32,362 bases of DNA from a virus, in the IMG/VR virus record IMGVR_UViG_3300033981_001523, positions 1 through 32,362 of that record; one strand, 5' to 3'. Below the pieces are notes generated by a model, which ran no database searches, was not told the origin of the DNA, and was given only the letters and a program-made list of their open reading frames with translations. Shown in pieces: positions 4,940 to 30,185 of the stretch (within the stretch, counting starts at the first letter, position 1; each line of letters begins with the position of its first letter). The translations under genes and the position numbers were made by a program.

Positions 4940-6022
4940 ATGACGAAGCGTGCATACGGGTCCGGGTCGAAGCGGGAGATCAGGCCGGGGGTGTGGGAGT
5001 TGCGAGCCGCCGGCCGTTCCAAGACGGTGCGAGGCTCGGCGAAGCAGGCCGAGCAGGCGTTGGCGCAGATGGTCGTCGGCACCGGTGGCCGCACCGGCTC
5101 ATCCGATGCGACGCTCGCCGAACTCGTCGAACACTGGTTGGCGTCGGCGCGCCTCGAGGCGTCGAGCGTGGCCACCTACCGTGTCGCCCTCGCCCACCTA
5201 CCTGCCTCGCTCGGCCGCAAGCGGGTCGACAGGCTGACGCTCGCCGACTTCGACCGGGGCTACGTCGACGCCGAGCGGGCCGGTGCACCGGTGCACCAGG
5301 TGCACAAGTTGCACACGGCGCTGTCGTCAGCGCTGACGCAGGCCGTGCGGTGGGGATGGATCGGTGCGCACCCGGCCCGCGGCGCACGTCTGCCGTCGCT
5401 GCCTGACCGCAAGGTGAAGCCGCCGTCGGCGGCGCAGGTGCAGCAGATCCTCGCCGAAGCAGCGAAGAACCTGCAGACGCACGCCTGGCTCCGTCTGGCC
5501 GTCACCACCGGTGCCCGGCGTGGCGAGGTGTTAGCACTTCGCTGGTCGGACATCGACCTCGATGCCGCAACGATGACCGTCGGCCGGTCGCTGAACGAGG
5601 ATCGCAGCACCAAGAGCACCAAGACGAACCGGGTGCGGGTGGTGCGCCTCGATGCCGTCACGGTGGCGCTGCTGCGCCAGTGGCGCAACGGCCAGCGCGA
5701 GCGCGCCCTGGCGTGCGGCGCGAGGCTCGCCCGTGATCCGTTCGTCCTCAGCAACTCGCCGGATTCGTCCGTGCCGTGGCGACCCGACGGCACGACGCAA
5801 CGGTTCCAGCGGCTCTGCGCCCGGGCCGGGGTGGAGGGTGTGCGGCTGCACGATCTGCGGCACGCGATGGCGTCGCAGCTGCTCGAGCGTGGCGTGTCGC
5901 CGGTGACCGTCGCCGGCCGTCTCGGCCACGCATCGACCACGACGACGCTGCGCACCTACGCGCATGTCGTCAGCGGCGCCGATGCTGCCGCTGCCGACGT
6001 GATCGCCGACGTGATCGGCTGA
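4940..6022 (+). CDS. int: Tyrosine-recombinase integrase
   Basis: A 360-residue integrase. ATG 4940 is chosen; an upstream in-frame TTG at 4904 would run through the arm sites. Residues about 1-45 (YGSGSKREIRPGVWELR) form an arm-binding domain, about 55-150 a SAM-like core-binding domain, and 160-360 the catalytic domain. The active site is complete: R193 (TTGARRGEV), K228 (STKTNRVRVV), H304-x-x-R307 (HDLRH), H330 (RLGH) and nucleophile Y340 (LRTYAHV). It recombines attP with a host tRNA-Val 3' end, judged from the adjacent core. Length and domain order are normal for actinophage integrases. Confidence 0.95.
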   Translation: MTKRAYGSGSKREIRPGVWELRAAGRSKTVRGSAKQAEQALAQMVVGTGGRTGSSDATLAELVEHWLASARLEASSVATYRVALAHLPASLGRKRVDRLTLADFDRGYVDAERAGAPVHQVHKLHTALSSALTQAVRWGWIGAHPARGARLPSLPDRKVKPPSAAQVQQILAEAAKNLQTHAWLRLAVTTGARRGEVLALRWSDIDLDAATMTVGRSLNEDRSTKSTKTNRVRVVRLDAVTVALLRQWRNGQRERALACGARLARDPFVLSNSPDSSVPWRPDGTTQRFQRLCARAGVEGVRLHDLRHAMASQLLERGVSPVTVAGRLGHASTTTTLRTYAHVVSGADAAAADVIADVIG

Positions 6023-14366: not shown

Positions 14367-15541
14367 TGGCCCACTACGCACTCGTCGAGGGCGAGCTCGT
14401 CGCCGCAACGGAACTCGGGATGAGGGGCCGCTGCTACAAGGGCTGCCTGATGATCGCGAAGCCCGGCAACGGCCAGGTCGTTTCGCACTGGGCGCACGAG
14501 CCAGGCAGCGACTGCCCCGTCGCCGACACCGAGAACAGCGAAGGCGACTGGCACAAGGAAGTGAAGATGCTGTTCGAACACTTCGGCGCCCAGCCCGAGG
14601 TGCCCGGCTACATCGCCGCCAACGGCCGCTTGCATCGCGCCGACGTCGTCCTGGCCGACGGCCGGGTCGTCGAGGCGCAGACGAAGGTGATGTCCGAGGA
14701 GGCGATCACGTCACGCGAAGCGACCTACGGCGACATGTGCTGGATCTACGACGCCAGGTACGCGCACGAGTGGTTCAACATCACGAACCCGAGCGCGCCG
14801 CACGTGTTCCGCTGGGCGATGCCCCGGCGCGCCCTGCTGGCGCACCAGCGACCGATCTACCTGGACTGCGGCACCGACGGCGTGTGGCGTCTCGACGCGA
14901 TGAAGCGGGACTGCACCGAACGGCCGACGGCCTACTCGGGCTGGCGCACGCGCGTCGCCTCCGACCTGCTCGAGTTCGTGAAGGTGGTCAGTGCCGGTGC
15001 CGTGTTCGGCGCCCCGCCGCTGATGCAGACCGTCGGTGAACGTCACCAGGCCAAGCGGTTCGCTGCGCAACTGATGGACGTCGAAACGTGGATGAGTTTG
15101 CATCAGACGTGCCATCGGCCGGCGGTGGAGTGGGCCACCAAGGAACTGCACCAGGGTCGGCACGAGGAGCGTCTGCGTGACGCAAGGCTTGAGGTCGAAC
15201 AGGCTCAGCGCCTTGAGATGGAGATGCAGGCAGCAAGGCTTGAGGAAGAACAGGCCAGCCGCCTCAAGATGGAGGTCCGGGCAAGGCTCGAAGCCGCACA
15301 GCATCGCCGCCTGGAGATAGAGAGGCTGGCCAGGGTCGATCTGGTCGCAACGATCACGCCGCTTCCGGCGGCCGACTTCACCGACTGGTCGAAGCTGCAG
15401 GGAATGCGCTGCTCTTGCGGCGACTGCACGTCGACCCGCTGGGGCGACCGCGGTGGCTGCAAGTCCGACTGCGTCCCGTGCGCACTGATGAACGGAACGG
15501 TGCACACCTCGCACCGACAGAACAAGGCGAATGCAGCATGA
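14366..15541 (+). CDS. CoiA-like nuclease-domain protein with coiled coil and Cys-rich tail
   Basis: A 391-residue protein from ATG 14366. The N-terminus shows the CoiA pattern. A C23-x3-C27 / H41-x2-H44 zinc-type region comes first. A PD-(D/E)XK-like nuclease block follows, with E59, H63 and K67 (SEGDWHKEVK), R91-A-D93 (HRADVV) and E103-x-Q105-x-K107 (VEAQTK). Residues about 262-325 are a charged coiled coil of repeated RLE-rich units. The end holds a Cys cluster (CSCGDC, then CKSDCVPC). CoiA acts in DNA uptake and recombination in Gram-positives. Here, next to the primase, it probably processes DNA ends or host DNA. The nuclease assignment rests on motif order only. Confidence 0.7.
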   Translation: MAHYALVEGELVAATELGMRGRCYKGCLMIAKPGNGQVVSHWAHEPGSDCPVADTENSEGDWHKEVKMLFEHFGAQPEVPGYIAANGRLHRADVVLADGRVVEAQTKVMSEEAITSREATYGDMCWIYDARYAHEWFNITNPSAPHVFRWAMPRRALLAHQRPIYLDCGTDGVWRLDAMKRDCTERPTAYSGWRTRVASDLLEFVKVVSAGAVFGAPPLMQTVGERHQAKRFAAQLMDVETWMSLHQTCHRPAVEWATKELHQGRHEERLRDARLEVEQAQRLEMEMQAARLEEEQASRLKMEVRARLEAAQHRRLEIERLARVDLVATITPLPAADFTDWSKLQGMRCSCGDCTSTRWGDRGGCKSDCVPCALMNGTVHTSHRQNKANAA

Positions 15542-18294
15542 CCACACTCGATCACGCACTCTGGTACGCCGCCAACGGTTGGCGAGTCGTGCCGATCCCC
15601 ACCGGCTACAAGTACCCCAAGGGCATCGCCGAATGGGAGACGAAGGCCACCACCGACCCCGAGCGGATTCGGCGCTACTACGCCGCCAACCCGACCCACG
15701 GCGTCGGTATCGCCACCGGGCCAGCCTCGGGCCTGTTCGTCATCGACATCGACCCGCGCGACGGTGGCGACGATTCGCTGGTGGCGCTCGAGGCCCGGTA
15801 CGGCCGACTGCCCGACACCGTCGAAGCGATCACGGGTGGCAACGGTCGCCACATCTACCTTCGCTGGCCGGAGACGGGCGAGATCCACAACTCGGCGAGC
15901 GGCGTGCTCGGCGTCGGCATCGACGTGCGTGGCATCAACGGCCAGGTCTTGGCCGCCCCGACGATCCACCCCACCACCGGCCAGGCCTACCAGTGGGACA
16001 TCGAGCACGACCCGATGTCGGGCCAGGCCGTCGCCGACGCACCGCAGTGGCTGATCGACCTGCTGCAGGCCCCGGTCGGCAACAACGAAGCCCGGCGCGA
16101 GCGGATCGCCCGCATCGACGGCGAGATGAAGCCCGGCGACATCTGGGCGCAGAACACCACCTGGGCCGACGAACTCACCAGGTACGGGGCGACGCTGCAC
16201 TCGCAGCACACCGACAGCGGTGGCGGCTACTACGAGCTATGGACCCGGCCGGGCAAGAGCCCGAAGGACGGCGCATCGGCGAGCCTGTACTACGGCGGCA
16301 CCGAATGCCTCAAGGTGTTCTCGTCGAACTGGGCACCGTTCACCGCCACCGAGATGGTCACCCTGTGGGGCTTTCATGTGGCGATGGAGCACGGCGGCGA
16401 CTTCTACCAGGCCGCCAAGGAGCACGGCGAGAAGCAGCGCATCGACCTCGGCGACCCGTTCACCGACCCCAGGGCCGAAGTCGAGGGCCGACGCCCGCGG
16501 CGCGGGATCGTGCACAACGGCCGCCAGCACGACGAGGTCGTCGCCGAAGCGATGCTCGCCCTGCAGGAAGCCAACGACCCGCCGGCCGTGTTCGTTCGCG
16601 CCGGGCAGTTGTGCCGGCTGCGCCAAGACGAAGATGACCGGCCGCTCATCGAAGCGTTGCGCCCCGAGCACGTCAGGCTGCAACTCGCCCACGCCGCCAA
16701 CTGGTACCGGGTCAACAAGGACGGCGACCATTCGAGCACGTCACCGCCGGGCGATGTGGCGGCGTCCATCGTTGCCTCGGGCGCGTGGGACATGCCTGCC
16801 CTTGCCGGTGTCGTCGAACTGCCGGTGCTACGCCCCGACGGCACGTTCCAGATCGGCCACGGCTACGACGGCTCGACCCGGCTGTTCCACTGGCACCGAG
16901 GCAAGCCGTACCCGGGCGTGAGCGACGAACCGACGGCCGCGGAACTCGCCGCGGCAGTGGCGCTGATCGACGAGACGCTGTGCGACTTCCCGTGGGACTC
17001 GACCGCCGACCGGGCCAATGCTTGGGCGCTGTTCCTGACGCCGCTGGTGCGAGCCATCGTCGGCCAGGTGCCGATGGCGCTCGTCGACGCACCAGAGCCG
17101 GGCACCGGCAAGGGGCTGCTGGTCAAGGTGGCGGCGATCATCACCATCGGCCGGGCCGCTGCGCTGATGGCGTGGCCGACCGGCGACGAAGAGCTGGAGA
17201 AGAAGGTCACGGCTGCACTCATGGCGGGATCGACGATGCTGATCTTCGACAACGTCGAGGGCGTCATCAAGAGCCCCACGCTCGCCGCGGTGCTCACCGC
17301 GGACTCATGGCAGGGCCGAGTGCTCGGCCGATCCGAGATGGTGACCGTGCCGAACCGGGCGACCTGGGCCTGCACGGGCAACAACATCGACGTCGGCGGC
17401 GACCTCGCACGACGCTGCTACCGCATCCGGCTCGACGCCCGCCAGGCGTCGCCGTGGCTGCGTACCGGCTTCAAGCACGCCGACCTCGGTGGCTGGGTGA
17501 GCGACAACCGTGGCGAACTGCTGCATGCGCTGTGCACCATCATCCGGTCATGGTGGGTGGCTGGTCGGCCGATGGCGACCAACGCACCAGCGATGGGCGA
17601 CTACTCGCGCTGGGTGCGCACCGTCGGCGGCATCCTCGATCACGCCGGGGTGAAGGACTTCCTCGGCAACCTTGCCGACTTCCACGCATCGGCCGACCGT
17701 GAAGCGGGGGCATGGGAAGCGTTCCTCGGCGCCTGGTTCGATCAGGTCGGCGAGGAGTCGCTCAGCGTCGGCGACCTGGTGGCCAAGATGCGCGACCCGT
17801 ACACCGGGGACCGCATCCTCGAGTCGCTTCCCGACGAACTCGCGGGGGAGTGGGGCAAGGGATCGTTCACTCAGCGGCTCGGCCAGGCGCTCCGCAAGCG
17901 CACCGGACGGCACTACGGGGCGAGCGGGATGCACCTTGTCGAGATGCCTCGCGACCGGCGACGAGTCGTCATCTACTCGGTGACGAAGCGTTCGGTCGCC
18001 ATGCAGAGCGCGGGGCTTGCTGAAGCCCCGCGCGAGGGCGACGCTGTGAGCAGGGATGACGCGAAAGACGCGGGGCTTGCGGGGCTTGAACCCCCTACCC
18101 CACGCGAAAAAAGTTATCCACAGGGTGGCGTGAGCGCTGCGCCAGAAATTGTCGGCCAGCGTGGCGAAACAGCCCCGCAAGCCCCGCAGCCCCGCGCGGA
18201 CGACCTCGGTCGCGAAACGGTCGGCCAGCGAGGCGAAACAGCCCCGCAGCCCCGCGCAGCCGCCTCGCCCGTCCCATCGATGGATCACTTCTGA
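15538..18294 (+). CDS. Primase-polymerase / helicase fusion (replication initiator)
   Basis: A 918-residue protein from ATG 15538 (ATGA overlap). Residues 1-190 are a bifunctional primase-polymerase domain, with metal-binding D70-x-D72 in LFVIDIDPRDG and H105 in GGNGRHIYL. A middle region leads to an ATPase module. Its Walker A is EPGTGKG (K525) and its Walker B LIFDNVEG (D571), with CTGNN downstream as sensor 1. The fusion is like plasmid and phage primase-helicases that start replication. A winged-helix-type region (LVAKMRDPYTGDRIL) precedes a low-complexity C-terminus (about 820-918) with repeated VGQRGETAPQ and many Pro. That last part overlaps origin-like DNA elements, so its sequence may be shaped by DNA function. 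Confidence 0.9.
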   Translation: MTTLDHALWYAANGWRVVPIPTGYKYPKGIAEWETKATTDPERIRRYYAANPTHGVGIATGPASGLFVIDIDPRDGGDDSLVALEARYGRLPDTVEAITGGNGRHIYLRWPETGEIHNSASGVLGVGIDVRGINGQVLAAPTIHPTTGQAYQWDIEHDPMSGQAVADAPQWLIDLLQAPVGNNEARRERIARIDGEMKPGDIWAQNTTWADELTRYGATLHSQHTDSGGGYYELWTRPGKSPKDGASASLYYGGTECLKVFSSNWAPFTATEMVTLWGFHVAMEHGGDFYQAAKEHGEKQRIDLGDPFTDPRAEVEGRRPRRGIVHNGRQHDEVVAEAMLALQEANDPPAVFVRAGQLCRLRQDEDDRPLIEALRPEHVRLQLAHAANWYRVNKDGDHSSTSPPGDVAASIVASGAWDMPALAGVVELPVLRPDGTFQIGHGYDGSTRLFHWHRGKPYPGVSDEPTAAELAAAVALIDETLCDFPWDSTADRANAWALFLTPLVRAIVGQVPMALVDAPEPGTGKGLLVKVAAIITIGRAAALMAWPTGDEELEKKVTAALMAGSTMLIFDNVEGVIKSPTLAAVLTADSWQGRVLGRSEMVTVPNRATWACTGNNIDVGGDLARRCYRIRLDARQASPWLRTGFKHADLGGWVSDNRGELLHALCTIIRSWWVAGRPMATNAPAMGDYSRWVRTVGGILDHAGVKDFLGNLADFHASADREAGAWEAFLGAWFDQVGEESLSVGDLVAKMRDPYTGDRILESLPDELAGEWGKGSFTQRLGQALRKRTGRHYGASGMHLVEMPRDRRRVVIYSVTKRSVAMQSAGLAEAPREGDAVSRDDAKDAGLAGLEPPTPREKSYPQGGVSAAPEIVGQRGETAPQAPQPRADDLGRETVGQRGETAPQPRAAASPVPSMDHF
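18008..18257. other. Candidate replication origin inside the 3' end of the primase gene
   Basis: A perfect 11-bp hairpin, GCGCGGGGCTT (18008-18018) / AAGCCCCGCGC (18023-18033), has a 4-base loop. CGGGGCTTGC recurs at 18071-18080. Next come a short A-tract and TTATCCACA (18114-18122), an exact match to the DnaA-box consensus. Direct repeats beginning TCGGCCAGCG and including GGCGAAACAGCCCCGCA lie at 18151-18197 and 18220-18257. Hairpin, A-rich patch, DnaA box and iteron-like repeats next to the initiator gene are the normal parts of a theta origin. Function is inferred. Confidence 0.55.
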
Positions 18295-21051: not shown

Positions 21052-21192
21052 ATGGACAAGCGCATCACCTCGGCAGTGGAGATCGCTTCGGCGGCCGCGC
21101 TGGTCATCGGCGCTGCGATGGTTGCCGGTGCTGCCGGCTGGATCGTCGGCGGTCTGCTCGGCATGGTGTTCGCTTGGCGGGCCGGGCTGTGA
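21052..21192 (+). CDS. 46-residue hydrophobic protein
   Basis: A 46-residue frame from ATG 21052, preceded by GAGGTGA and overlapping the portal start by GTGA. After a short polar start (MDKRITSAVEI) it is almost all hydrophobic (AAALVIGAAMVAGAAGWIVGGLLGMVFAW), one long or two short membrane spans. Very small membrane proteins are seen between terminase and portal in some actinophages; their role is not known. Reality is supported by the ribosome site and the overlap. Confidence 0.6.
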   Translation: MDKRITSAVEIASAAALVIGAAMVAGAAGWIVGGLLGMVFAWRAGL

Positions 21193-22862
21193 GTCTGCTG
21201 TTCCGCACCCGCAAGCCTGCCGAGGTCGAGGCCGAGCGCAGCCAGATCAGTTTCGCCGAGTACACCAAGCTCATCGAGCCGTGGCTGCCGTGGTTCTCGC
21301 AGCAGCCGAAGTCTCGCGAGCACACCGAGCGCACCCTGGCAGGCATGACCCGCCAGGCGTACGGCACCTCGGGTGTGGCGTTCGCGTGCGCAGCGGTGCG
21401 CATGCAGGTGTTCAGCGAGGTCACCTTCCGCTGGCAGGATCTGGCCAGCCGCCGACTGTTCGGCAACGCCGACCTGTCGCCGCTGGAGTCGCCGTGGCCC
21501 GGTGCTGCGACCGACGACCTGCTGGCCCGCATGGAGCAGGACGCGACGATCTGCGGCAACTCGTACTGGATCAGCGCCGGTTCACTGGTGCGCACGGACG
21601 GCTTGCAGTTGCAGCGCCTGCGCCCGGAGTGCGTGACGATCATGCTCGAGCCGGTCGAGCACCGCTTCGGCGGTGTGATCGGGATGCGCAAGGCCGGGTA
21701 CGTCTACACCGAGGACGACAAGAGCGAGCCGGTGCTGCTCGACCTGGAGGAGGTGGCGCACTTCGCGCCGCTGCCCGATCCTCGGGCCCAGTTCCGGGGC
21801 ATGTCGTGGCTGTCGGCGGTGCTGCCCGACGTGGACATCGACACGTCGATCCAAGACTTCAAGCAGTCATTCCTCGACAACCAGGCGACGCCGAACCTCG
21901 TCATTTCGTTCGATCCGTCGGTGTCGCCGGAGACGTTCAAGCGGCTCACCGAGGTGATCCGGTCGAAGGCTGCAGGCACGGCGAACGCTGGCAAGACGCT
22001 CGCCCTCGGCGGCGGTGCCGACGTGAAGGTCGTCGGCTCCAACTTCGAGCAGCTCGCTATCAAGGCGGTGCAGGGTGCGGGCGAGACCCGCATCGCCGCC
22101 GCTGCTGGCGTGCCGCCGGTGATCGTCGGCCTCAGCGAAGGCCTGTCCGGTTCGTCGCTGAACGAGGGCAACTACGGCCAGGCGCGCCGCCGGTTCGCTG
22201 ATGGAACGATGCGCCCGAACTGGCGCAGTGCTGCGACCGCTCTGGCGACACTGGTGCGCCCGCCTGCGGGTGCACGGCTGTGGTTCGACGCTTCCGACGT
22301 GGCGTTCTTGCAGGAGGACGTCGCCGACGATGCTGCGATTCGTGAGGCGCATGCCCGCACGATTCGCCAACTGGTCGACGCCGGGTTCACGCCGTCGGCG
22401 GCGGTGTCGGCGGCGGTCGACGGCAACTTCGACGGTCTCGCTGCGGCTCATTCGGGCCTGTTCAGTGTGCAGTTGCAGCCGCCCGGGTCGGGCGATCAGC
22501 CCGCCCGTTCGGAGATGCTGGTGCCGCTCGTCGAGGAGCGCACCACGGCGCCGGAGATGCATTTCCATCTACCCGACTCAATCGACGTGCAGATGCGCCA
22601 GGAGCCGATCATCATCCCGGCTCCGGTGGTCAATGTGCCTGCCCCGATAGTGAACGTCACGGTCGATCCGACGCCGGTGCAGGTCGACGTCGCTGCCCCG
22701 GTGGTGAATGTCGCCCCGGCCGAGGTCGTCGTGAATGTGCCCCCGGTGCAACTCGAGCTGCTGCCCGCTGCCGAGTCCGACGGGCCCGAGCGCAAGAAGG
22801 TCACCTTCAAGCGCGACAAGGACGGCCGCATCATCTCGGCTGAGATGGTCGAGGAGGACTGA
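21189..22862 (+). CDS. Portal protein (HK97-like) with repetitive C-terminal tail
   Basis: A 557-residue protein from GTG 21189. Residues about 50-430 match HK97-type portals: SGVAFACAAVRMQVFSEV, DLLARMEQDATICGNSYWI, then QDFKQSFLDNQATPNLVISF and the EGLSGSSLNEGNYGQARRRF segment near the crown. The ring forms the DNA entry channel at one capsid vertex and docks the terminase and the connector. The tail (about 474-530) has repeated PVVNV/PIVNV units, followed by KKVTFKRDKDGRIISAEMVEE, a charged ending seen in phage structural proteins. The extra tail could interact with the internal capsid or the scaffold. Confidence 0.92.
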   Translation: MSLLFRTRKPAEVEAERSQISFAEYTKLIEPWLPWFSQQPKSREHTERTLAGMTRQAYGTSGVAFACAAVRMQVFSEVTFRWQDLASRRLFGNADLSPLESPWPGAATDDLLARMEQDATICGNSYWISAGSLVRTDGLQLQRLRPECVTIMLEPVEHRFGGVIGMRKAGYVYTEDDKSEPVLLDLEEVAHFAPLPDPRAQFRGMSWLSAVLPDVDIDTSIQDFKQSFLDNQATPNLVISFDPSVSPETFKRLTEVIRSKAAGTANAGKTLALGGGADVKVVGSNFEQLAIKAVQGAGETRIAAAAGVPPVIVGLSEGLSGSSLNEGNYGQARRRFADGTMRPNWRSAATALATLVRPPAGARLWFDASDVAFLQEDVADDAAIREAHARTIRQLVDAGFTPSAAVSAAVDGNFDGLAAAHSGLFSVQLQPPGSGDQPARSEMLVPLVEERTTAPEMHFHLPDSIDVQMRQEPIIIPAPVVNVPAPIVNVTVDPTPVQVDVAAPVVNVAPAEVVVNVPPVQLELLPAAESDGPERKKVTFKRDKDGRIISAEMVEED

Positions 22863-23281
22863 TGACCGACTTCGTCGGCTACACCCCGGGCACCGGGGAG
22901 AACGTCGCCGTCGACCGGATCGACGGCCTGCTGCACCAGCGCGTCAAGCTCGGCATCGGCGACGACGGCACCGCCGTCGATGTGTCCGAGGCCAACCCGA
23001 TGCCGATCAACGCCGTCGGTGAACTGATCGAAGCGGTCGAGGCGATGCGTCTGGCGATCCAGTCGCTGACCCGTTCGATGGGTCAGGCGATGCCCGACAC
23101 CGCCGGCCGTCTGCGCGTGAACGTCGAGACGGGCGCACTGACGGCGTCGCTGGCTGCGGCGCAGACGTTGGCGACGCTCACAAACCAGACGCAGGTCGGC
23201 GGCAACCCGGCCTTCGAACAGATCCCCGCCCTGATGCGCCTCGGTGCCGACTCCCTGCGACGAAACGTGAGCGTGACCTGA
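22862..23281 (+). CDS. Head or virion structural protein, unknown
   Basis: A 139-residue protein from ATG 22862 (TGATG overlap). Early beta-like segments include ENVAVDRIDG and VSEANPMPIN. A helix (GELIEAVEAMRLAIQSLTRS) and a last part (AGRLRVNVETGALTASL) follow. The AVDVSEANPMPIN and GRLRVNVETG type of phrases recur in phage virion proteins with a helical core and beta ends. Its place between portal and the large beta-rich protein suggests a head-associated or decoration role. Confidence 0.55.
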   Translation: MTDFVGYTPGTGENVAVDRIDGLLHQRVKLGIGDDGTAVDVSEANPMPINAVGELIEAVEAMRLAIQSLTRSMGQAMPDTAGRLRVNVETGALTASLAAAQTLATLTNQTQVGGNPAFEQIPALMRLGADSLRRNVSVT

Positions 23282-24723
23282 TGCCCACCACCAACGGCAA
23301 CCGCAAGATCCTCGACCTGAAGCGATGGGAGTTCTGCACGCCCGCCCCAGCGGCAACGGCGGCAGGCGCGTTCATCTCGTCGAGCCGCCACTTCCGCCAG
23401 CAGCAGCTCTACGTCACCAGCGCAACCGTGCACCACCTGTACAACCCGCAAGAGGATGCGTGGGTGCAGATCCCGTCGGGCGCGCTGGCTGGCACGTTCG
23501 CCGCTGGTGCGTGCGGCACGGCCACGGCGATCGGCCCGTCGGGCACCGCCACGGGTGGCAGCACGTCGACGATCAACACGAACCTGACGCTGGCCCGCGA
23601 CCTGCGCGGGTACAGCATCCACATCACCGGCGGCCCGAACGCTGGCGTGACGCTGCAGATCAGCAGCAACGCGATCGGCACGAACTCGGTCATCACGGTG
23701 CCGACCCAGGCGTCGGCGTTCACGGCCTCTACGACCTACCGCCTCATCACGCCGAGGTGGTACGTGCTGAACGCCATCACGGCCGCAGGCACCACCACCG
23801 CAGCCGTGTTCCGCTTCTACGATTTCGCGACGAACACCTGGGCCTCGGCTGAGACCGGCGCCACGGACGGCATCGCCCCAGCGGCAGTAATCGGGACCGA
23901 CTCCAAGCTCATCGCCACCCCGTCGTGGCAGGGCACCGGCTACAAGGCTTTCGCCACCGGCACCGCCACGGCTGGCGGCGCATCGACGCTGACGAACTCG
24001 GCGAAGACCTGGACCGTGAACCAGTGGTCGAACTACCAGGTCAGGATCGTGTCGGGCACCGGTGCCGGGCAGATCCGCACCATTGCCAGCAACACGGCGA
24101 CGGCGCTGACCACCTCGGCGGCGTGGACGACGAACCCGGACGCTACCTCGGTCTACAACATCGAGGGCAACGACGACTTCATCTACTACATGGGTAGCAA
24201 CGCCGTCACGCTGTTCCGCTATTCGATCAGCGCTGGCACCTGGACGACGATCACGCCGGGCGTCGCCCGCGCTGCCGCGCCGGGCGCCGGCATGTCGGGG
24301 CACTGGGCGTGGGAGTCGACCGACTCGGCGTGGACGAACGAGTCGGCGATCATCTCCGGTCGCCGCATCTACTCGTTCCGTGGTGGCGCTTCGGCGGTGC
24401 TCGACTACTACGACATCGCCGCCAACACCTGGGTCAACGGCGTGACCTACGCCCCGGCGGCAGAGACGTACACGACCGGCAGCAAGTACGTGTACCTCAA
24501 CGATGCCATCTACGTCCAGAAGGAAGCGACCGGCCGCTGGCTAAGGCTGAACCTGGTCACCTCCGAGCAGGACGGCTGGTCGACGATGACCTACACCCAG
24601 GGTGCTGCGGTGCTCGGCGACACGGCGTTCGACGTTCACTACGTGGACGGCGCCACCGAGATCGACTACGTCTACATGGTGCTCAACACCAGCACGGTCA
24701 TGCTCCGGGCGATGGTGATCTGA
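23281..24723 (+). CDS. Beta-propeller-like head fibre or decoration protein
   Basis: A 480-residue protein from ATG 23281. Kelch-like units recur: LYNPQEDAWVQI, FYDFATNTWASA, RYSISAGTWTTI and YYDIAANTWVNG. These are inter-strand signatures of a beta-propeller. Two inserted related blocks, at about residues 89-157 and 227-297, share the order G-T-A-T, S-T-x-N, then G-x-x-A-G-x-x-x-x-I-x-S-N. They look like a repeated beta-domain. It is Ser/Thr/Ala-rich with little charge, as in virion surface proteins. It is unusually placed between portal and protease, so it may be a head-surface fibre or decoration protein. No enzyme motif is seen. Confidence 0.65.
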   Translation: MPTTNGNRKILDLKRWEFCTPAPAATAAGAFISSSRHFRQQQLYVTSATVHHLYNPQEDAWVQIPSGALAGTFAAGACGTATAIGPSGTATGGSTSTINTNLTLARDLRGYSIHITGGPNAGVTLQISSNAIGTNSVITVPTQASAFTASTTYRLITPRWYVLNAITAAGTTTAAVFRFYDFATNTWASAETGATDGIAPAAVIGTDSKLIATPSWQGTGYKAFATGTATAGGASTLTNSAKTWTVNQWSNYQVRIVSGTGAGQIRTIASNTATALTTSAAWTTNPDATSVYNIEGNDDFIYYMGSNAVTLFRYSISAGTWTTITPGVARAAAPGAGMSGHWAWESTDSAWTNESAIISGRRIYSFRGGASAVLDYYDIAANTWVNGVTYAPAAETYTTGSKYVYLNDAIYVQKEATGRWLRLNLVTSEQDGWSTMTYTQGAAVLGDTAFDVHYVDGATEIDYVYMVLNTSTVMLRAMVI

Positions 24724-24884
24724 TGACCGTCGACGACCTGATCCGTCAGGCCCGCACATGGGTCGCTCGTCAGACGGTGCTACGGGCCGAAGCGGTGCGC
24801 CTCGGCGACACGGCCGCCATCGCCGCTGCCGACGCCGAGATCGCCACCACCGAGGACACCATCGCCACGCTCGAGGCGCTGTAG
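24723..24884 (+). CDS. Small helical protein
   Basis: A 53-residue protein from ATG 24723 (TGATG overlap with the upstream stop). It is all helix, with heptad-like LIRQARTWVARQTVLRAEAV and AADAEIATTEDTIATLEAL. It could be a coiled-coil trimerisation partner of the preceding fibre-like protein. No family is recognised. Confidence 0.55.
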   Translation: MTVDDLIRQARTWVARQTVLRAEAVRLGDTAAIAAADAEIATTEDTIATLEAL

Positions 24885-24899
24885 CCGAAGGGAGCGGCC

Positions 24900-25064
24900 G
24901 TGCTGCTCACACTGCTGCAGTCACAGGGATCGACACCGCCCGAGCCGCCCCCGTCGCCGGGTGGTGGCCCTGGCAACAAGTTCCGGCTGCTCACCGAGCG
25001 ACTGCCGGACCTGAACGACGACGACGAGGCAATCGCCCTCGCTCTCGTCCTGCTCGCCGCCTGA
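24900..25064 (+). CDS. Small Pro/Gly-linker protein
   Basis: A 54-residue frame from GTG 24900 after GGGAG (24889-24893). A short hydrophobic start (MLLTLLQSQ) is followed by a PPEPPPSPGGGPGN linker and a C-terminal acidic-hydrophobic helix (DLNDDDEAIALALVLLAA). Coding is suggested by the ribosome site and clean codon pattern, but length makes it uncertain. Function unknown. Confidence 0.45.
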   Translation: MLLTLLQSQGSTPPEPPPSPGGGPGNKFRLLTERLPDLNDDDEAIALALVLLAA

Positions 25065-25093
25065 CGGCGGCCGACCCTCACAGAGGAGGCCCC

Positions 25094-25837
25094 ATGCTCG
25101 CCTTCGAGCGTTACGCGCCCCTGGACGACCTCGAGGTGCGCTCGACGGCCACCGGCCGCCAGTTGCTCGCCTACGCGGCCGTGTTCGGTCGCGATCAGGA
25201 GATCCGTGACCGGGAAGGTCACTACCTCGAGCGGATCGCCCCGACGGCGTTCGATCGTACGATCGGCCAGCGCGGCACGAACTTCCAGGTGCTGTTCAAC
25301 CACGGCCGCACCATCCACGGCGACTCCAGCGAGCGGTACTCCATGCCGATCGGTGTGCCCGCCGAGGTGCGCGCCGACGGGCGTGGCCTGTGGACGGTAA
25401 CCGACATCGCTGCCACCCCGCTCGGCGATGAGGTGCTCGCCCTCGCTGAGGGCGGTGCGCTGCGTGGCATGTCGTTCTCGGGCCAGTTCCGGGCCACGAA
25501 GTCTGCCGGCAAGGTCGACGGCCTGGCGGTCAAGGAACGCACCGAGATCGCGATGATCGAGTACGGGCCGACGCCGTTCCCGGCCTACTCGGATGCCGCC
25601 ATCGTGGCGGTGCGCTCGGAGTTCTCGTCGCTCAGCGACGACGAGCTCGCCCTGATTCTCGGCGAGGACGACGCCATGCGCGCCCGTCTCGCCGACCTGC
25701 TCGCCTCGCTCACGCCCGTCACCGGGCCCAGCGAGTCGTCCCCCACTTCCTCGCCCGACACCGGGCACGTCGTGGTCCTCACCCCATCCCAGCGTCGCTT
25801 ACGCGACCTGATCCTCACGAAGGAGACCGCACGATGA
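25094..25837 (+). CDS. Capsid maturation (HK97-type prohead) protease
   Basis: A 247-residue protein from ATG 25094 with GAGGAGG at 25083-25089. The U35-type serine protease fold is seen: the LLAYAAVFGR and HYLERIAPTAFD start, H70 in LFNHGRT, and S127 in GGALRGMSFSGQF as the catalytic nucleophile. ERTEIAMIEYGPTPFPAY follows as the usual conserved end. It removes the N-terminal scaffold part of the major capsid protein. The C-terminal 80 residues are acidic and Ser/Pro-rich and may be self-cleaved. It overlaps the capsid gene by ATGA. Confidence 0.93.
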   Translation: MLAFERYAPLDDLEVRSTATGRQLLAYAAVFGRDQEIRDREGHYLERIAPTAFDRTIGQRGTNFQVLFNHGRTIHGDSSERYSMPIGVPAEVRADGRGLWTVTDIAATPLGDEVLALAEGGALRGMSFSGQFRATKSAGKVDGLAVKERTEIAMIEYGPTPFPAYSDAAIVAVRSEFSSLSDDELALILGEDDAMRARLADLLASLTPVTGPSESSPTSSPDTGHVVVLTPSQRRLRDLILTKETAR

Positions 25838-27234
25838 ACCGTGCAGCACTCGTCGCCGAGGCCGAGGCCATCCGTGCCCGACTCGCCGACATCGACCCCG
25901 ACAACCTGACCACCGAGCAGGCCGACGCCTTCGAGGCCGACGCCGCCCGCTACTCCGAGATCGAGGCCGACGTGGCCAAGCTCGACGAGCGCGCCGCCAA
26001 GATCGAAGCGATCCGCAGCGGCGAGATCAAGACCATCACCGGCGACAGCCGCGACGTGGTCGCCCCGACGGTGCTGAAGCGCAGCGCCGACCGTGACCTG
26101 TACGACATCGAGGGTGCGGGCCGTTCGGCCAACGCCCACGACATCGTCGAGCGGGCCATCACCGCCGTGGAGCGCAACGCCGAGCGGAGCTACTCCGACG
26201 AGCAGCGCGACGCCACGACCCGTCTGCTGGAGCGCAGCACCAAGCACACGCCGAAGATCGCCGAGTACATCCTGCTGACCGGTTCGCCGCAGTACCAGCA
26301 GGAGTTCGAGACCTTCGTCAAGACGCAGGGCCGCTCGTTCGGTCCGCTGCTCGAGCGTGCGGCGATGAGCCTGACGACTGCCAATGGCGGCGCAATGGTC
26401 CCATATATCCTCGACCCGAGCGTCATGCTGACCAACTCCGGCGTGAACAACCCGGTGCGCCAGGCGGCCCGCGTCGAGACCATCGCCGGCTCCAACGAGT
26501 GGCGTGGCGTGACCTCGGCCGGCGTCACGGCTGAGTGGCTGGCGGAAGGCGCCGAGGCGGCCGATGCGTCGCCGACGTTCGCCCAGCCGGCGATCCCCAC
26601 CTTCAAGGGTGCGGCCTACCTGTTCGGCTCGTACGAGGTGCTCGCCGACAGCGGTTTCGCCTCGCAGGTGCAGACGCTGATCGGTGACGCCAAGGACCGC
26701 CTCGAGGGCACCGCCTTCACGACCGGCAACGGCACCTCGGCCCCGCAGGGCTTCATCACCGGCAAGGTTGCCGCCGGTTCGCTGGTGGCCTCGGCCACGA
26801 CCGACACCTTCGCCGTCGCCGACGTGTACAACACGCAGGCCGGTCTCGCTCCCCGCTTCCGCAACTCGCGGTCGGCGTGGATGGCGAACGTGTCCATCAT
26901 GAACCGCATCCGTCAGTTCGACACGAACGGCGGCTCGGCACTGTGGGCGCAGCTCGCTGCGGCCGCACCGGCCAACCTGCTCGGCCAGCCGATCTACGAG
27001 ACCAGCGACATGGACGGCACCATCACCGCCCTGGCCGACAACTACGTCTTGGCCTACGGCGACTGGCAGCAGGCGTACGTCATCGTCGACCGCGTCGGCG
27101 TCGAGGTCTACTACGACAACCTCGTGCTCGGCGCCAACCGCCGTCCCACGGGCCAGGCCGGGTTCTTCGCCTTCTGGCGTACCGGTGGTGAGGTCGTGGT
27201 TCCCGAGGCGATCAGCCTCCTCAACGTCACCTGA
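25834..27234 (+). CDS. Major capsid protein (HK97 fold) with N-terminal delta domain
   Basis: A 466-residue protein from ATG 25834. The N-terminal ~100 residues are an acidic coiled coil (LVAEAEAIRARLADIDPDNL, YSEIEADVAKLDERAAKIEA), the delta or scaffold domain. The HK97 fold begins near 165-185 (GPLLERAAMSLTTANGGAMV). It continues through SNEWRGVTSAG, PAIPTFKGAAYLFGSYEVLAD, TTGNGTSAPQGF, and the late QPIYETSDMD and YGDWQQAYVIVDRVGVEVYYDNL strands. It is cleaved by the upstream protease and forms the icosahedral shell. Directly downstream lies an oxygenase-like gene, an uncommon neighbour. Confidence 0.94.
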   Translation: MNRAALVAEAEAIRARLADIDPDNLTTEQADAFEADAARYSEIEADVAKLDERAAKIEAIRSGEIKTITGDSRDVVAPTVLKRSADRDLYDIEGAGRSANAHDIVERAITAVERNAERSYSDEQRDATTRLLERSTKHTPKIAEYILLTGSPQYQQEFETFVKTQGRSFGPLLERAAMSLTTANGGAMVPYILDPSVMLTNSGVNNPVRQAARVETIAGSNEWRGVTSAGVTAEWLAEGAEAADASPTFAQPAIPTFKGAAYLFGSYEVLADSGFASQVQTLIGDAKDRLEGTAFTTGNGTSAPQGFITGKVAAGSLVASATTDTFAVADVYNTQAGLAPRFRNSRSAWMANVSIMNRIRQFDTNGGSALWAQLAAAAPANLLGQPIYETSDMDGTITALADNYVLAYGDWQQAYVIVDRVGVEVYYDNLVLGANRRPTGQAGFFAFWRTGGEVVVPEAISLLNVT

Positions 27235-27725
27235 TGACCCCTCAGCGAGTCGGCACCGACCAACTCGCTGCTCTGCTCGACCTCGTCGGCCCGTTGTGGT
27301 CGGCGAGGTCGAGCGCCACCGAGACCGGTGTGCACGACGGCTACCGCCAGGTGACCATCGTGCACGCCGGTCGCCTGGCGGTGCCCGGCTTCGCCGAGGT
27401 GCTCGCCCAGTTCGCTCCGGTGCATGGGGCGTGGCTGTCGGGCCTTGCGCCTGGCGGCTTCATCGCCGAACACATCGACGCGGGCCCGCACTGGGAGCGG
27501 TGGCAGTTGCCGTTCACGACGGCCGGCTGCCTGTTGCAGTGCGGCGCCCCGGTGCACCACGAGGTCGGCGTGCCGTTCCGGGTGGCGCACCACGACTGGC
27601 ACAGCGTGATCAACACCGACGACACCGAACGGGTGGCGCTGGTGATCGACCGTGCCGTGCCGCTGTCCATTCCGTCCGCACCGCTGCAGGTGCGCAACAT
27701 CGAGGAGGGGCGATGCCTCGTCTGA
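27234..27725 (+). CDS. Asp/Asn beta-hydroxylase-like Fe(II)/2-oxoglutarate oxygenase
   Basis: A 163-residue protein from ATG 27234 (overlapping the capsid stop). The iron-binding facial triad is H80-x-D82 (FIAEHIDAGPHWERW) and H123 (HHDWHSVINTD). R133, exactly 10 residues after the distal His, would bind the 2-oxoglutarate carboxylate (TDDTERVALVID). The N-T-D-D-T-x-R-V-A-L-V-I-D ending is characteristic of the aspartyl/asparaginyl hydroxylase family. These enzymes hydroxylate Asp/Asn or related residues on proteins. Coupling to the capsid gene suggests the target may be a virion protein, or that it modifies a host factor. All triad residues are present, so it should be active. Confidence 0.78.
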   Translation: MTPQRVGTDQLAALLDLVGPLWSARSSATETGVHDGYRQVTIVHAGRLAVPGFAEVLAQFAPVHGAWLSGLAPGGFIAEHIDAGPHWERWQLPFTTAGCLLQCGAPVHHEVGVPFRVAHHDWHSVINTDDTERVALVIDRAVPLSIPSAPLQVRNIEEGRCLV

Positions 27726-27883
27726 CCGAGACCGTGCATCACGCATCGGGCACCTACGAGGCGGGCGCGGTGCTCGCCGCCGATCACCCGCTGGTGAAGG
27801 CCGGGCCGCACCTGTTCGTCGCCGACGAGCCGGTCGTCGCTGCTAAGCCTGCCAAGCCTGCCAAGGTGAAGGCCGAGGGCTGA
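27713..27883 (+). CDS. Small virion-region protein
   Basis: A 56-residue protein from ATG 27713 with GAGGAGGGG upstream, overlapping the oxygenase end by 13 bases. The pattern TVHHASGTYEAGAVLAADHPLVKAGPHLFV followed by a Lys/Ala/Pro tail (AAKPAKPAKVKAEG) matches a very common type of small protein after capsid genes in actinophages. It is probably a head-tail joining accessory. The basic Ala/Pro/Lys tail might contact DNA or capsid. Confidence 0.6.
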   Translation: MPRLTETVHHASGTYEAGAVLAADHPLVKAGPHLFVADEPVVAAKPAKPAKVKAEG

Positions 27884-27884
27884 C

Positions 27885-28484
27885 GTGGCCTACGTCTCGC
27901 TCACCGACTTCAAGTCGTGGGTGCGCAACGAGCTCGGTACTGCCGAGGACTCGATCCTGCAGGCTGGCATCGACGCCGCCGTCATCGCCGTGAACGAGCA
28001 TTGCGGGCGCAGCTTCGACATTGCCGGTTCGCCCTCGGCGCGCTCGTTCGTGCCCGAGTCGTACCGCCTGGTCATCATCGACGACTGCACCAGTGTCACG
28101 TCGGTCGTCGAGAACGGCGACACGATCGCTGCCAGCGGCTACCAGTTGGAGCCGCTGAACGGTCGTCGGCCGAGCGGCCTGGCGGTGCCGTACGACCAGA
28201 TCCGACGCATCCACGGCGACTGGTACATCGACGCCACCGATGAGGGCCGTGCGACGATCGTCGTGACGGCGGCGTGGGGCTGGGCAGTCAGGCCCGCCCC
28301 GGTGATCGAGGCGACCAAGATCCTCGCCAAGGACATCCTCATGCAGCGCGACACCCGTAACGGTGTCGCTGCGTTCGGCGAGTTCGGCTCGCTGCGGGTG
28401 CGGCTCAACCCGTACGTCGAGGAGCTGCTGAAGCCGTTCGTGAAGGAATCAGCCACGCCGGTCGACGCCATCGGAGTGTTCTGA
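27885..28484 (+). CDS. Head-tail connector (adaptor) protein
   Basis: A 199-residue protein from GTG 27885, one base after the previous stop. It starts with a helical LTDFKSWVRNELGTAEDSIL and ALDAAVIAVNEHCGRSF-like segment typical of gp6/gp15-type adaptors. A beta part follows (RLVIIDDCTSVTSVVENGDT) and then a helical end (IEATKILAKDILMQRDTRNG). This protein sits below the portal ring and joins head to tail. The assignment is by pattern and position after the capsid gene. It overlaps the next gene by TGATG. Confidence 0.75.
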   Translation: MAYVSLTDFKSWVRNELGTAEDSILQAGIDAAVIAVNEHCGRSFDIAGSPSARSFVPESYRLVIIDDCTSVTSVVENGDTIAASGYQLEPLNGRRPSGLAVPYDQIRRIHGDWYIDATDEGRATIVVTAAWGWAVRPAPVIEATKILAKDILMQRDTRNGVAAFGEFGSLRVRLNPYVEELLKPFVKESATPVDAIGVF

Positions 28485-28930: not shown

Positions 28931-29662
28931 ATGCCTGTCTACGCCAACACGCGCGTCTCGGCGATCGTCGACACGCTCGAGATCGCCACCTTCGCCACAA
29001 CCGTGACGATGGAAGCGACCGCCGACGAGATCGACGTCACGACCCTCAACAGCGGAGGTTGGCGCCAGAAGATCGCCGGGCTGCGCACCTTCTCGGTCGG
29101 CATCGACGGCTACCAGGACTTCGACTTGATCGGCGTCGATCCGCTGTTCGGTACCAGCGGCCTCACCGTGCTCGACACGTTCACCGTGGCGCCGGTCTCG
29201 ACCGCAACGGCCGGCGATGTGGCCTTCATCGGCCAGGGCCGACTGCTCGGCAACACGCCGCTCAGTGGCGCTGTCGGCGACGCCGCCGGGTTCTCGATGA
29301 ACTGGGCGGGCACCGATGTCGTCGCCCGCGGCCAGGTGCTGCACCCGTCGGCGGCTCGCACCACCTCGAGCACCGGCACCGCTCTGGCGTTCACGTTCCC
29401 GACCGCGACGCAGCGGCTCTACGCCACGTTCCACGTGTTGAGCGTGACAGGCACCGGCTCGATCGTATTCACGGTGCAGTCGGACGACGCCGTCGGCTTT
29501 CCGTCGGCAACGACTCGGATCACCTCGCAGACCTTCACCGGGATCGGGCACCAGTTGGCGAGCGTCGCTGGCCCGATCACCGCAGAGACGCATGCCCGCC
29601 TCGGCTGGACGATCACCGGCTTCACGTCGGTGACCTTCGTCGCCGCTGCGGCCGTGGCCTGA
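28931..29662 (+). CDS. Major tail tube protein
   Basis: A 243-residue protein from ATG 28931. The motif GWRQKIAGL at residues 43-51 and the QDFD at 62-65 mark a tail-tube beta-sandwich. Early strands (EIATFATTVTMEATADEIDVTTLNSGGW-like region, about 17-44) and later beta segments complete the fold. A C-terminal Ser/Thr/Ala-rich extension (about 140-243) could be an Ig-like or decoration domain on the tail surface. It polymerises into the hollow tail. The paralogous gene lies directly after it. Confidence 0.82.
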   Translation: MPVYANTRVSAIVDTLEIATFATTVTMEATADEIDVTTLNSGGWRQKIAGLRTFSVGIDGYQDFDLIGVDPLFGTSGLTVLDTFTVAPVSTATAGDVAFIGQGRLLGNTPLSGAVGDAAGFSMNWAGTDVVARGQVLHPSAARTTSSTGTALAFTFPTATQRLYATFHVLSVTGTGSIVFTVQSDDAVGFPSATTRITSQTFTGIGHQLASVAGPITAETHARLGWTITGFTSVTFVAAAAVA

Positions 29663-29696: not shown

Positions 29697-30185
29697 ATGG
29701 CCGTCTTCGCATTGACTTCAGCAACCATCCAAGTCGGCACCGCATGGACCGGCACCGCTCCCGGCGGCGTCGCCGCTGCATCGGGCACGATCACCTCGGC
29801 CGTCAACATCAGCGCCCTGGTGAGCCAGGTCGAACTGAGCCTCGAGGCCGAAGAGCTCGACTTCACCAACTTTGCCAGCGCCGGTTGGCGTCAGAAGATC
29901 GGTGGCCTGCAGATGGGCACCGTGGCGCTGACCCTCAACCAGGACTTCGACGCCAGCGTGACCGACGCGATCTTCGGTCTCGGTGGCACGCTCGGCTTCG
30001 GTTCGGCGTCGTCGCTGTTCATGGACATCCGGCCCACCTCGGCGGTGCGGTCAGCGACGAACCCGTCGTACGTGCTGCGCTTCCTGAACCTCGGCTACTC
30101 GCCGATCAGCAACGGCGTCGGCGAGTTGGCGACGGTGTCGCTGTCGTTCCCGACGACCGGCGTGGTCACCCGCCTCACGGCCTGA
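29697..30185 (+). CDS. Second tail tube protein (paralogue)
   Basis: A 162-residue protein from ATG 29697 after AGAAGGAG (29683-29690). GWRQKIGGL at 63-71 and QDFD at 82-85 keep the same 19-residue spacing as in the upstream gene, and the preceding strand (ELSLEAEELDFTNFASA) is similar too. It lacks the C-terminal extension. The two genes arose by duplication. One may form the main tube and the other a minor ring, or the tube may be mixed. Confidence 0.78.
   Translation: MAVFALTSATIQVGTAWTGTAPGGVAAASGTITSAVNISALVSQVELSLEAEELDFTNFASAGWRQKIGGLQMGTVALTLNQDFDASVTDAIFGLGGTLGFGSASSLFMDIRPTSAVRSATNPSYVLRFLNLGYSPISNGVGELATVSLSFPTTGVVTRLTA

What the first reader, a model, noticed from the sequence alone, without database searches (positions are those of the whole stretch)
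27234..27725. A complete 2-oxoglutarate oxygenase gene coupled to the major capsid gene
The gene overlaps the capsid stop codon and carries an intact H80-x-D82...H123 iron triad and R133 at the usual spacing, as in Asp/Asn beta-hydroxylases. Such an enzyme inside the head operon, not among metabolic genes, suggests protein hydroxylation in virion assembly. The likely targets are the capsid, the protease or the connector. I know of 2OG oxygenases in other phages, but not of a defined capsid-hydroxylating one.
Basis: partly seen in the sequence, partly recalled or inferred. Interest (0 to 1): 0.78.

Follow-up and report, generated by a model that had tools for sequence, protein, structure and literature searches.

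The report
Phage capsid-linked oxygenase gene family
A bacterial virus carries, directly behind its shell-protein gene, a gene for an oxygen- and iron-using hydroxylase that has stayed with the shell gene through long evolution, which suggests that some phages chemically modify their own particles; the modification itself still has to be shown.

Summary
ORF 27234-27725 (163 aa) overlaps the stop codon of a PF05065 major capsid gene (MCP) by 1 nt and is a PF05118-type Fe(II)/2-oxoglutarate oxygenase. Its predicted fold matches AspH and proline hydroxylases. H80, D82, H123 and R89 are kept in 17 of 17 dereplicated relatives. One detail is off: human AspH binds iron with two histidines and has no HxD carboxylate, so the likeness covers fold and 2OG pocket, not the triad.

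The gene pair is conserved. Of 37 viral contigs with sequence upstream of the oxygenase, 36 have the MCP within 1.25 kb, across two MCP clades only 16-24% identical and including M. abscessus prophages ("oxidoreductase"). The exception (L050) follows a presumed tail-tube gene. Many MCP relatives lack the enzyme, so it is dispensable, and it co-varies with the whole head module, not the MCP alone.

Most likely it hydroxylates the MCP or another virion protein during assembly. No substrate is shown: no MCP residue tracks the enzyme. Five literature searches listed no paper that I recognised as describing such a pair. It is a new variant of a known kind, and directly testable.

The parts
25834..27234 (+). 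Major capsid protein (466 aa), HK97-type Phage_capsid
   Evidence: PF05065 E 7.5e-45; phrog_10 major head protein 4e-44
27232..27236 (+). TGATG: stop of MCP overlaps start of oxygenase by 1 nt (translational coupling inferred)
   Evidence: sequence
27234..27725 (+). Capsid-linked Fe(II)/2OG oxygenase, 163 aa
   Evidence: PF05118 at cutoff; AF2 and structure matches; 17 dereplicated relatives, the window included
27471..27479 (+). H80-I81-D82: first part of the predicted iron triad
   Evidence: 17 of 17 keep H and D
27498..27506 (+). R89-W90-Q91: counterpart by spacing of AspH R688 and H690, which bind the 2OG analogue; Q in 11 and H in 6 of 17
   Evidence: AspH roles from passages of PMC6817910 and PMC10947486; correspondence by spacing is inference
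27600..27602 (+). H123: second predicted iron histidine
   Evidence: 17 of 17
27630..27632 (+). R133: predicted 2OG C5-carboxylate arginine, 10 residues after H123 as AspH R735 after H725
   Evidence: 16 of 17, one gap
27713..27883 (+). Small 56-aa ORF overlapping the oxygenase end; related-looking small genes follow the MCP or oxygenase in many relatives
   Evidence: gene caller; no Pfam or PHROG hit for 27707-27883
25094..25837 (+). Prohead protease upstream of MCP
   Evidence: Peptidase_S78 E 4.1e-16, found in the longer ORF 24758-25837; start
27885..28484 (+). Head-tail adaptor downstream
   Evidence: phrog_442 E 1.6e-16
21174..22862 (+). Portal protein
   Evidence: PF04860 E 3.1e-31

Best explanation
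The gene encodes a minimal single-domain Fe(II)/2-oxoglutarate oxygenase made together with the major capsid protein. Shown: gene, fold prediction, conserved iron and 2OG residues, purifying selection, and conserved linkage to the MCP. Inferred: the enzyme is active; being translated directly behind the MCP, it meets the fresh capsid subunit (or another virion protein made from the same operon) and uses O2 and 2OG to hydroxylate one or a few side chains (Asp/Asn, Pro or His) before or during prohead assembly; the hydroxyl group then tunes capsid stability or subunit contacts. It is an accessory trait, since related phages build the same kind of capsid without it. My odds: active 2OG oxygenase about 0.9; substrate is a virion protein about 0.65; substrate is the MCP itself about 0.45.
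For: Found by oxygenase sequence alone, 36 of 37 contigs with upstream sequence have an MCP gene within 1.25 kb upstream (7 of 44 contigs start inside or just before the oxygenase). Dereplicated: 16 of 17, directly abutting (-1 to 39 nt) in 10 of the 18 gaps measured. Linkage spans two MCP clades only 16-24% identical, while the oxygenases across them are 34-50% identical. Known phages: M. abscessus prophages prophiGD02-2 and GD90-1 have it right behind the MCP. The other close genes vary: a decoration-type gene in L019, L033, L035, L036, L045, L046 and L049 but not in the window, L034 or L044; no small ORF called after the oxygenase in L044; HNH endonuclease between the two in L006, L008, L031, L033, L035 and L036. 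So the MCP is the constant nearby gene. Oxygenase and MCP distances correlate (r 0.73, 14 rows, permutation p about 0.0002), and the oxygenase tree recovers the second MCP clade as one group (66% of bootstrap trees). Catalytic residues are invariant. No separate promoter- or terminator-like site was found around it (a simple scan that expects few anyway).
Against: No substrate shown. In 57 dereplicated MCPs (13 with, 44 without oxygenase) no residue tracks the enzyme after phylogeny; only 3 independent pairs exist, so the test is weak. Correlation is not specific to the MCP: oxygenase-portal r 0.68 and oxygenase-protease r 0.72, and within the first clade oxygenase-portal (0.71) and oxygenase-protease (0.70) exceed oxygenase-MCP (0.66). 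L050 carries it behind a presumed tail-tube gene, with no such MCP within 4 kb upstream. Window and L125 have MCPs 89% identical but oxygenases only 52% identical, so over the short term the enzyme diverges much faster than its supposed target, or was swapped. Free-proline hydroxylases (4p7w, 1e5r) are among the best fold matches.
Confidence: 0.45

Rival explanations
1. It hydroxylates a virion protein other than the MCP (head-tail adaptor, portal, protease, small connector-like protein, or tail tube), and sits behind the MCP only because that is a good slot in the late operon.
For: L050 has it behind a presumed tail-tube gene; oxygenase distances correlate with portal and protease as well as with MCP; portal and protease genes lie upstream in the operons that reach that far.
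Against: The MCP is the gene that is near in 36 of 37 contigs; decoration gene and small ORF are not constant.
Confidence: 0.2
2. It is a small-molecule enzyme (for example a free proline or other amino-acid hydroxylase) carried as late-expressed cargo.
For: L-proline cis-4-hydroxylase 4p7w is the top Foldseek match (E 2.2e-8); 7v4m, a hydroxylase of a nucleoside-antibiotic pathway, has the lowest rmsd among the top matches (2.1).
Against: AspH, a protein hydroxylase, matches at least as well by Z (14.4 against 14.3 and 12.9; differences under 1 are ties); a cargo gene need not stay behind the MCP across two capsid clades; the genes called around it belong to the head and tail modules.
Confidence: 0.17
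3. It modifies a host protein or counters a host defence; the capsid link is only about timing of expression.
For: Patchy presence: 5 gains or losses on the MCP tree, at least 3 forced, and fast divergence between window and L125 resemble an arms-race gene.
Against: Accessory defence genes usually move around; this one keeps its place. Late expression behind the MCP is a poor time to disarm a host (both inference).
Confidence: 0.13
4. A catalytically dead cupin that acts as a structural or chaperone protein of the head.
For: Its size and place are like those of small head proteins (inference).
Against: H80, D82, H123 and R89 in 17 of 17 and R133 in 16 of 17 relatives that differ elsewhere by up to about two thirds of residues.
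Confidence: 0.05

Closest known systems
prophiGD02-2 / prophiGD90-1 gene 86 'oxidoreductase' (Mycobacterium abscessus prophages, subcluster MabA2; GenBank MW584199, MW584176)
   Same: Same family (38% identity), same place right behind a related MCP (47%)
   Different: Followed by a 76-aa gene and an annotated capsid decoration protein, absent in the window; protease annotated as a MuF fusion; function not stated in the passages of PMC8092301 that I saw
[quoted passage not shown]
   Same: Fold (Z 14.4, rmsd 2.8 over 142 residues); spacing of both histidines and of the 2OG arginines
   Different: AspH has no HxD carboxylate and uses H679 and H725 only; it has a TPR domain and EGF-domain substrates; 14% identity
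L-proline cis-4-hydroxylase (4p7w) and proline 3-hydroxylase (1e5r)
   Same: DSBH fold, Z 12.9 and 13.7
   Different: Longer proteins (280 and 260 residues) with proline as substrate; 14 and 13% identity
Aspartyl/asparaginyl beta-hydroxylases annotated in other phages (Limnohabitans phage DC33 ORF8, cyanomyoviruses, pelagimyophages)
   Same: Same annotation; DC33 ORF8 (PF05118, E 6e-14) lies in the packaging region between terminase and a head-tail connector gene
   Different: DC33 is distant (36.7% over 45% of the query); in the passages seen the papers do not link these genes to the virion (PMC12195039, PMC3037559, PMC7029224)
Virion glycosylation enzymes of actinobacteriophages
   Same: Works-like parallel: virion-modifying enzyme genes carried by phages; glycosyltransferase-like genes follow the MCP in relatives L056 and L070
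   Different: Sugar transfer, not hydroxylation; unrelated fold (recalled). Known here from one sentence and the reference list of PMC13313380; the primary paper was not held

Membership tests
Fe(II)/2OG oxygenase superfamily (DSBH) | Double-stranded beta-helix fold | tested here: met
   Best AF2 model and its PDB matches, AspH Z 14.4; the other four AF2 models were poor
Fe(II)/2OG oxygenase superfamily (DSBH) | HxD/E...H iron triad | tested here: met
   17 of 17
Fe(II)/2OG oxygenase superfamily (DSBH) | Basic residue for the 2OG C5 carboxylate | tested here: met
   R133 in 16 of 17, one gap; its role is by analogy with AspH R735
Fe(II)/2OG oxygenase superfamily (DSBH) | 2OG-, Fe- and O2-dependent turnover | not testable with these tools
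   needs an enzyme assay
PF05118 Asp_Arg_Hydrox | Score at or above the curated cutoff of 22.6 bits | tested here: inconclusive
   window 22.6 (at cutoff), L125 25.3, but L019 21.7, L050 15.3, L044 12.9, L129 14.0 and L130 13.9 fall below
AspH (protein Asp/Asn beta-hydroxylase) | Two-histidine iron site without carboxylate | tested here: not met
   D82 present in 17 of 17; AspH lacks such a ligand
AspH (protein Asp/Asn beta-hydroxylase) | TPR domain | tested here: not met
   163-aa single domain
AspH (protein Asp/Asn beta-hydroxylase) | Hydroxylates Asp/Asn in proteins | not testable with these tools
   needs mass spectrometry
L-proline cis-hydroxylases | Free proline as substrate | not testable with these tools
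   fold match only
Capsid-linked oxygenase family (proposed here) | Gene within 1.25 kb behind an MCP gene | tested here: met
   the window, and 36 of 37 contigs with upstream sequence; L050 is the exception

The most novel reading that the evidence does not exclude
These phages run a dedicated capsid hydroxylase: an oxygen-dependent step of head assembly in which the MCP is hydroxylated by an enzyme translated from the overlapping next gene, inherited as a pair through at least two deeply separated capsid clades. Capsid maturation would then be tied to O2, iron and 2OG in the host cell.
Probability: 0.4. Interest if true: 0.85.

Novelty: new variant of a known kind. Interest (0 to 1): 0.6.

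Why it matters
Known covalent changes of phage capsids are mostly proteolysis, cross-linking and glycosylation (recalled). A capsid-linked 2OG oxygenase would add an O2-, iron- and metabolite-dependent hydroxylation, could couple particle quality to the metabolic state of the host, and would give a small single-domain protein hydroxylase with a large, symmetric and easily purified substrate. It would also give a function to a gene carried by prophages of the M. abscessus MabA2 group (a passage of PMC10654092 counts 44 prophages in the MabA2-3 cluster; how many of these carry the gene was not tested). Even if the target is another virion protein, the question is now narrow and testable.

Tried and rejected
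C-terminal NVT signature of the MCP: first seen in the 8 oxygenase-bearing MCPs of A4 ([ND]VT end) against 3 without, then rejected, because many MCPs without the enzyme also end in NVT (for example L078, L097, L102, L105, L116, L117) and L044-L047 with the enzyme do not.

MCP residue that tracks the enzyme: D324 is Asp in 12 of 12 oxygenase-bearing MCPs (L044 set aside; it has V there) and in 11 of 44 others, but several near relatives without the enzyme share it, and with 3 independent pairs no test can reach 0.05. N357, N464, D71, N403, N206 and D410 were no better. No site is claimed.

Decoration protein or small downstream protein as the constant partner: rejected as a general rule, since the window, L034 and L044 lack the decoration gene and L044 lacks the small ORF in a simple codon-based gene caller.

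Host-genome copies: two scans of genome contigs matched patterns but no relatives; these scans need exact short patterns, so absence is weak. Tail-tube identity of the L050 neighbour: AF2 model unusable (pLDDT 40.1), no Pfam family and only phrog_19985 at 0.035, so the label rests on its place before the tape measure (phrog_167). Two of its relatives with sequence further downstream (L132, L134) have no oxygenase; L133 ends too early.

Rows dropped before counts: MCP ORFs under 420 aa or cut by an end, and oxygenase-free loci with under 1,800 nt behind the MCP; 90 sequences were left and 57 kept at 95%. The MCP scan kept the best 80 of 484 hits, so the 13 to 44 ratio is no frequency. L125-L130 came later and are not in the MCP tree. 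The 17 rows are one per group of near-identical contigs, chosen by hand. L128's start codon is uncertain. One paper search of 10 and one viral scan of 8 were left unused.

Full report
What is there. The window is an IMG/VR virus record of 32,362 bases, 65-70% G+C, with a tyrosine integrase (4940-6022, PF00589) and a Prim-Pol protein (15538-18294), so most likely a temperate phage. The head operon reads terminase, portal, Kelch-like protein, protease, major capsid protein (MCP), then the ORF in question, a small ORF, adaptor, tail terminator, two tail-tube-like genes and tape measure. The ORF at 27234-27725 overlaps the MCP stop by one base as TGATG, an arrangement in which termination and re-initiation usually couple translation (established knowledge; not measured here).

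What the protein is. PF05118 (Asp_Arg_Hydrox) is met exactly at its cutoff (22.6 bits), and several relatives fall below it. The fold settles the matter better: the best AF2 model, from nine aligned sequences, has pLDDT 87.1 and pTM 0.84, although the other four models were poor, at 39 to 63. Its best matches are the AspH oxygenase domain (Z 14.4), a nucleoside-antibiotic hydroxylase (7v4m, Z 14.3) and proline 3- and cis-4-hydroxylases (13.7, 12.9); by Foldseek the top match is proline cis-4-hydroxylase (2.2e-8). Sequence search of the PDB with the profile found nothing significant (best E 0.14; the nucleoside hydroxylase 7v4f at 0.83).

Active site. H80, D82, H123 and R89 are present in 17 of 17 dereplicated relatives and R133 in 16, with one gap that I take to be L043, cut by its contig end. 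Spacing matches AspH: H80 to R89 is 9 as H679 to R688, H80 to Q91 is 11 as H679 to H690, and H123 to R133 is 10 as H725 to R735. In AspH R688, H690 and R735 bind the 2OG analogue (passages of PMC6817910 and PMC10947486). Position 91 is Gln in 11 and His in 6 of 17.

Conserved linkage. Relatives were sought by oxygenase sequence alone and gave 44 contigs. Seven start inside or just before the gene. Of the other 37, 36 have an MCP gene upstream, at most 1.25 kb away. Many contigs are near-copies; dereplicated, it is 16 of 17. In 10 of 18 measured cases the two genes abut (-1 to 39 nt). Elsewhere an HNH endonuclease (PF13392 tested in L006 and L033; alike in L008, L031, L035, L036), a decoration-type gene (L045, L046) or small genes (L031, L043) lie between. 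Named phages with the pair are two M. abscessus prophages, where the gene is annotated 'oxidoreductase'. The MCPs fall into two clades with 16-24% identity between them in the 13 rows compared, whereas the oxygenases across the same split are 34-50% identical.

History. On a tree of 57 dereplicated MCPs (13 with, 44 without the enzyme) the trait needs 5 changes, at least 3 forced by well supported branches. Brujita, Kita, Eyre, Sbash, Shagrat and Mcklovin have related MCPs and no such gene in the stretches read. So the enzyme is an accessory that is gained or lost, but keeps its place. Oxygenase distances correlate with those of the MCP (r 0.73), portal (0.68) and protease (0.72) over 14 rows (over 9 rows r was 0.81, 0.72 and 0.71). 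That shows co-inheritance with the head module, not with the MCP in particular; within the first clade portal (0.71) and protease (0.70) correlate slightly better than the MCP (0.66). Against simple co-evolution, the window and L125 have MCPs 89% and oxygenases 52% identical. The oxygenase tree still pairs them (98/99) and groups the second capsid clade in 66% of bootstrap trees.

Likely mechanism. The steady neighbour is the MCP; decoration protein and small downstream protein come and go. An enzyme translated behind the MCP would meet fresh subunits at the right time. I therefore think hydroxylation of the MCP most likely (0.45), another virion protein next (0.2). L050, whose gene follows a presumed tail-tube gene, fits the wider idea that the enzyme sits beside an abundant virion protein, but speaks against a capsid-only role. 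Limnohabitans phage DC33 has a distant PF05118 protein between terminase and a connector gene. Free-amino-acid hydroxylation stays open because of the proline hydroxylase matches.

What failed. No MCP residue tracks the enzyme once relatedness is allowed for; the C-terminal NVT idea was refuted. The only substrate evidence is therefore genomic position.

Print. Five searches in a library of open-licence PMC papers gave 5, 2, 15, 1 and, for, 147 papers of which 8 were listed; from titles, abstract starts and a few passages, none that I saw describes a capsid-linked 2OG oxygenase. Phage aspartyl/asparaginyl hydroxylases are mentioned in PMC12195039, PMC3037559 and PMC7029224 (passages) without such a link. 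PMC8092301 and PMC10654092 (passages) cover the M. abscessus prophages and do not discuss this gene in the passages seen. PMC7824862 (passages) speaks of 2OG oxygenases of jumbo phages in DNA modification and small-molecule clusters. Most subscription papers and preprints are not in the library.

Verdict. Real, conserved and under-described; mechanism inferred. New variant of a known kind; interest 0.6.

Noticed in passing
window 23281-24723: A 480-aa Kelch-like protein (Kelch_3 E 9.5e-5) sits between portal and protease in the head operon; L125 has a 497-aa protein of different start and end sequence in the same place.
   Followed up: no
window 28931-29662 and 29697-30185: Two adjacent genes that look like tail-tube paralogues; the first meets PF06199 at its cutoff, the second had no Pfam hit at 0.01 but looks alike by eye.
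   Followed up: no
L006, L008, L031, L033, L035, L036 between MCP and oxygenase: HNH_3 endonuclease genes inserted between capsid gene and oxygenase (Pfam tested in L006 and L033), present or absent among closely related phages of the window group, as expected of homing-type elements.
   Followed up: partly
L127 3349-4880 against L126; L130 6723-8709: L126 and L127 share a near-identical MCP-oxygenase pair, but L127 carries a methyltransferase-like gene (below cutoffs) and a glycosyltransferase gene (PF13524) and a different tail-tube-like gene; L130 has a similar cassette.
   Followed up: partly
L056 7546-8292, L070 6983-7735: Family-2 glycosyltransferase-like genes behind the MCP in relatives without the oxygenase (L056 above the PF13632 cutoff, L070 below), a possible parallel case of capsid modification.
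   Followed up: partly
window 27234-27725 against L125 7033-7500: Oxygenases 52% identical while the MCPs are 89% identical: unusually fast divergence or replacement of the enzyme.
   Followed up: no
L020 5683-6755 (Limnohabitans phage DC33): A PF05118 hydroxylase gene and an acetyltransferase-like gene lie together between terminase and head-tail connector; the record is classed as Inoviridae although it has tailed-phage genes.
   Followed up: no
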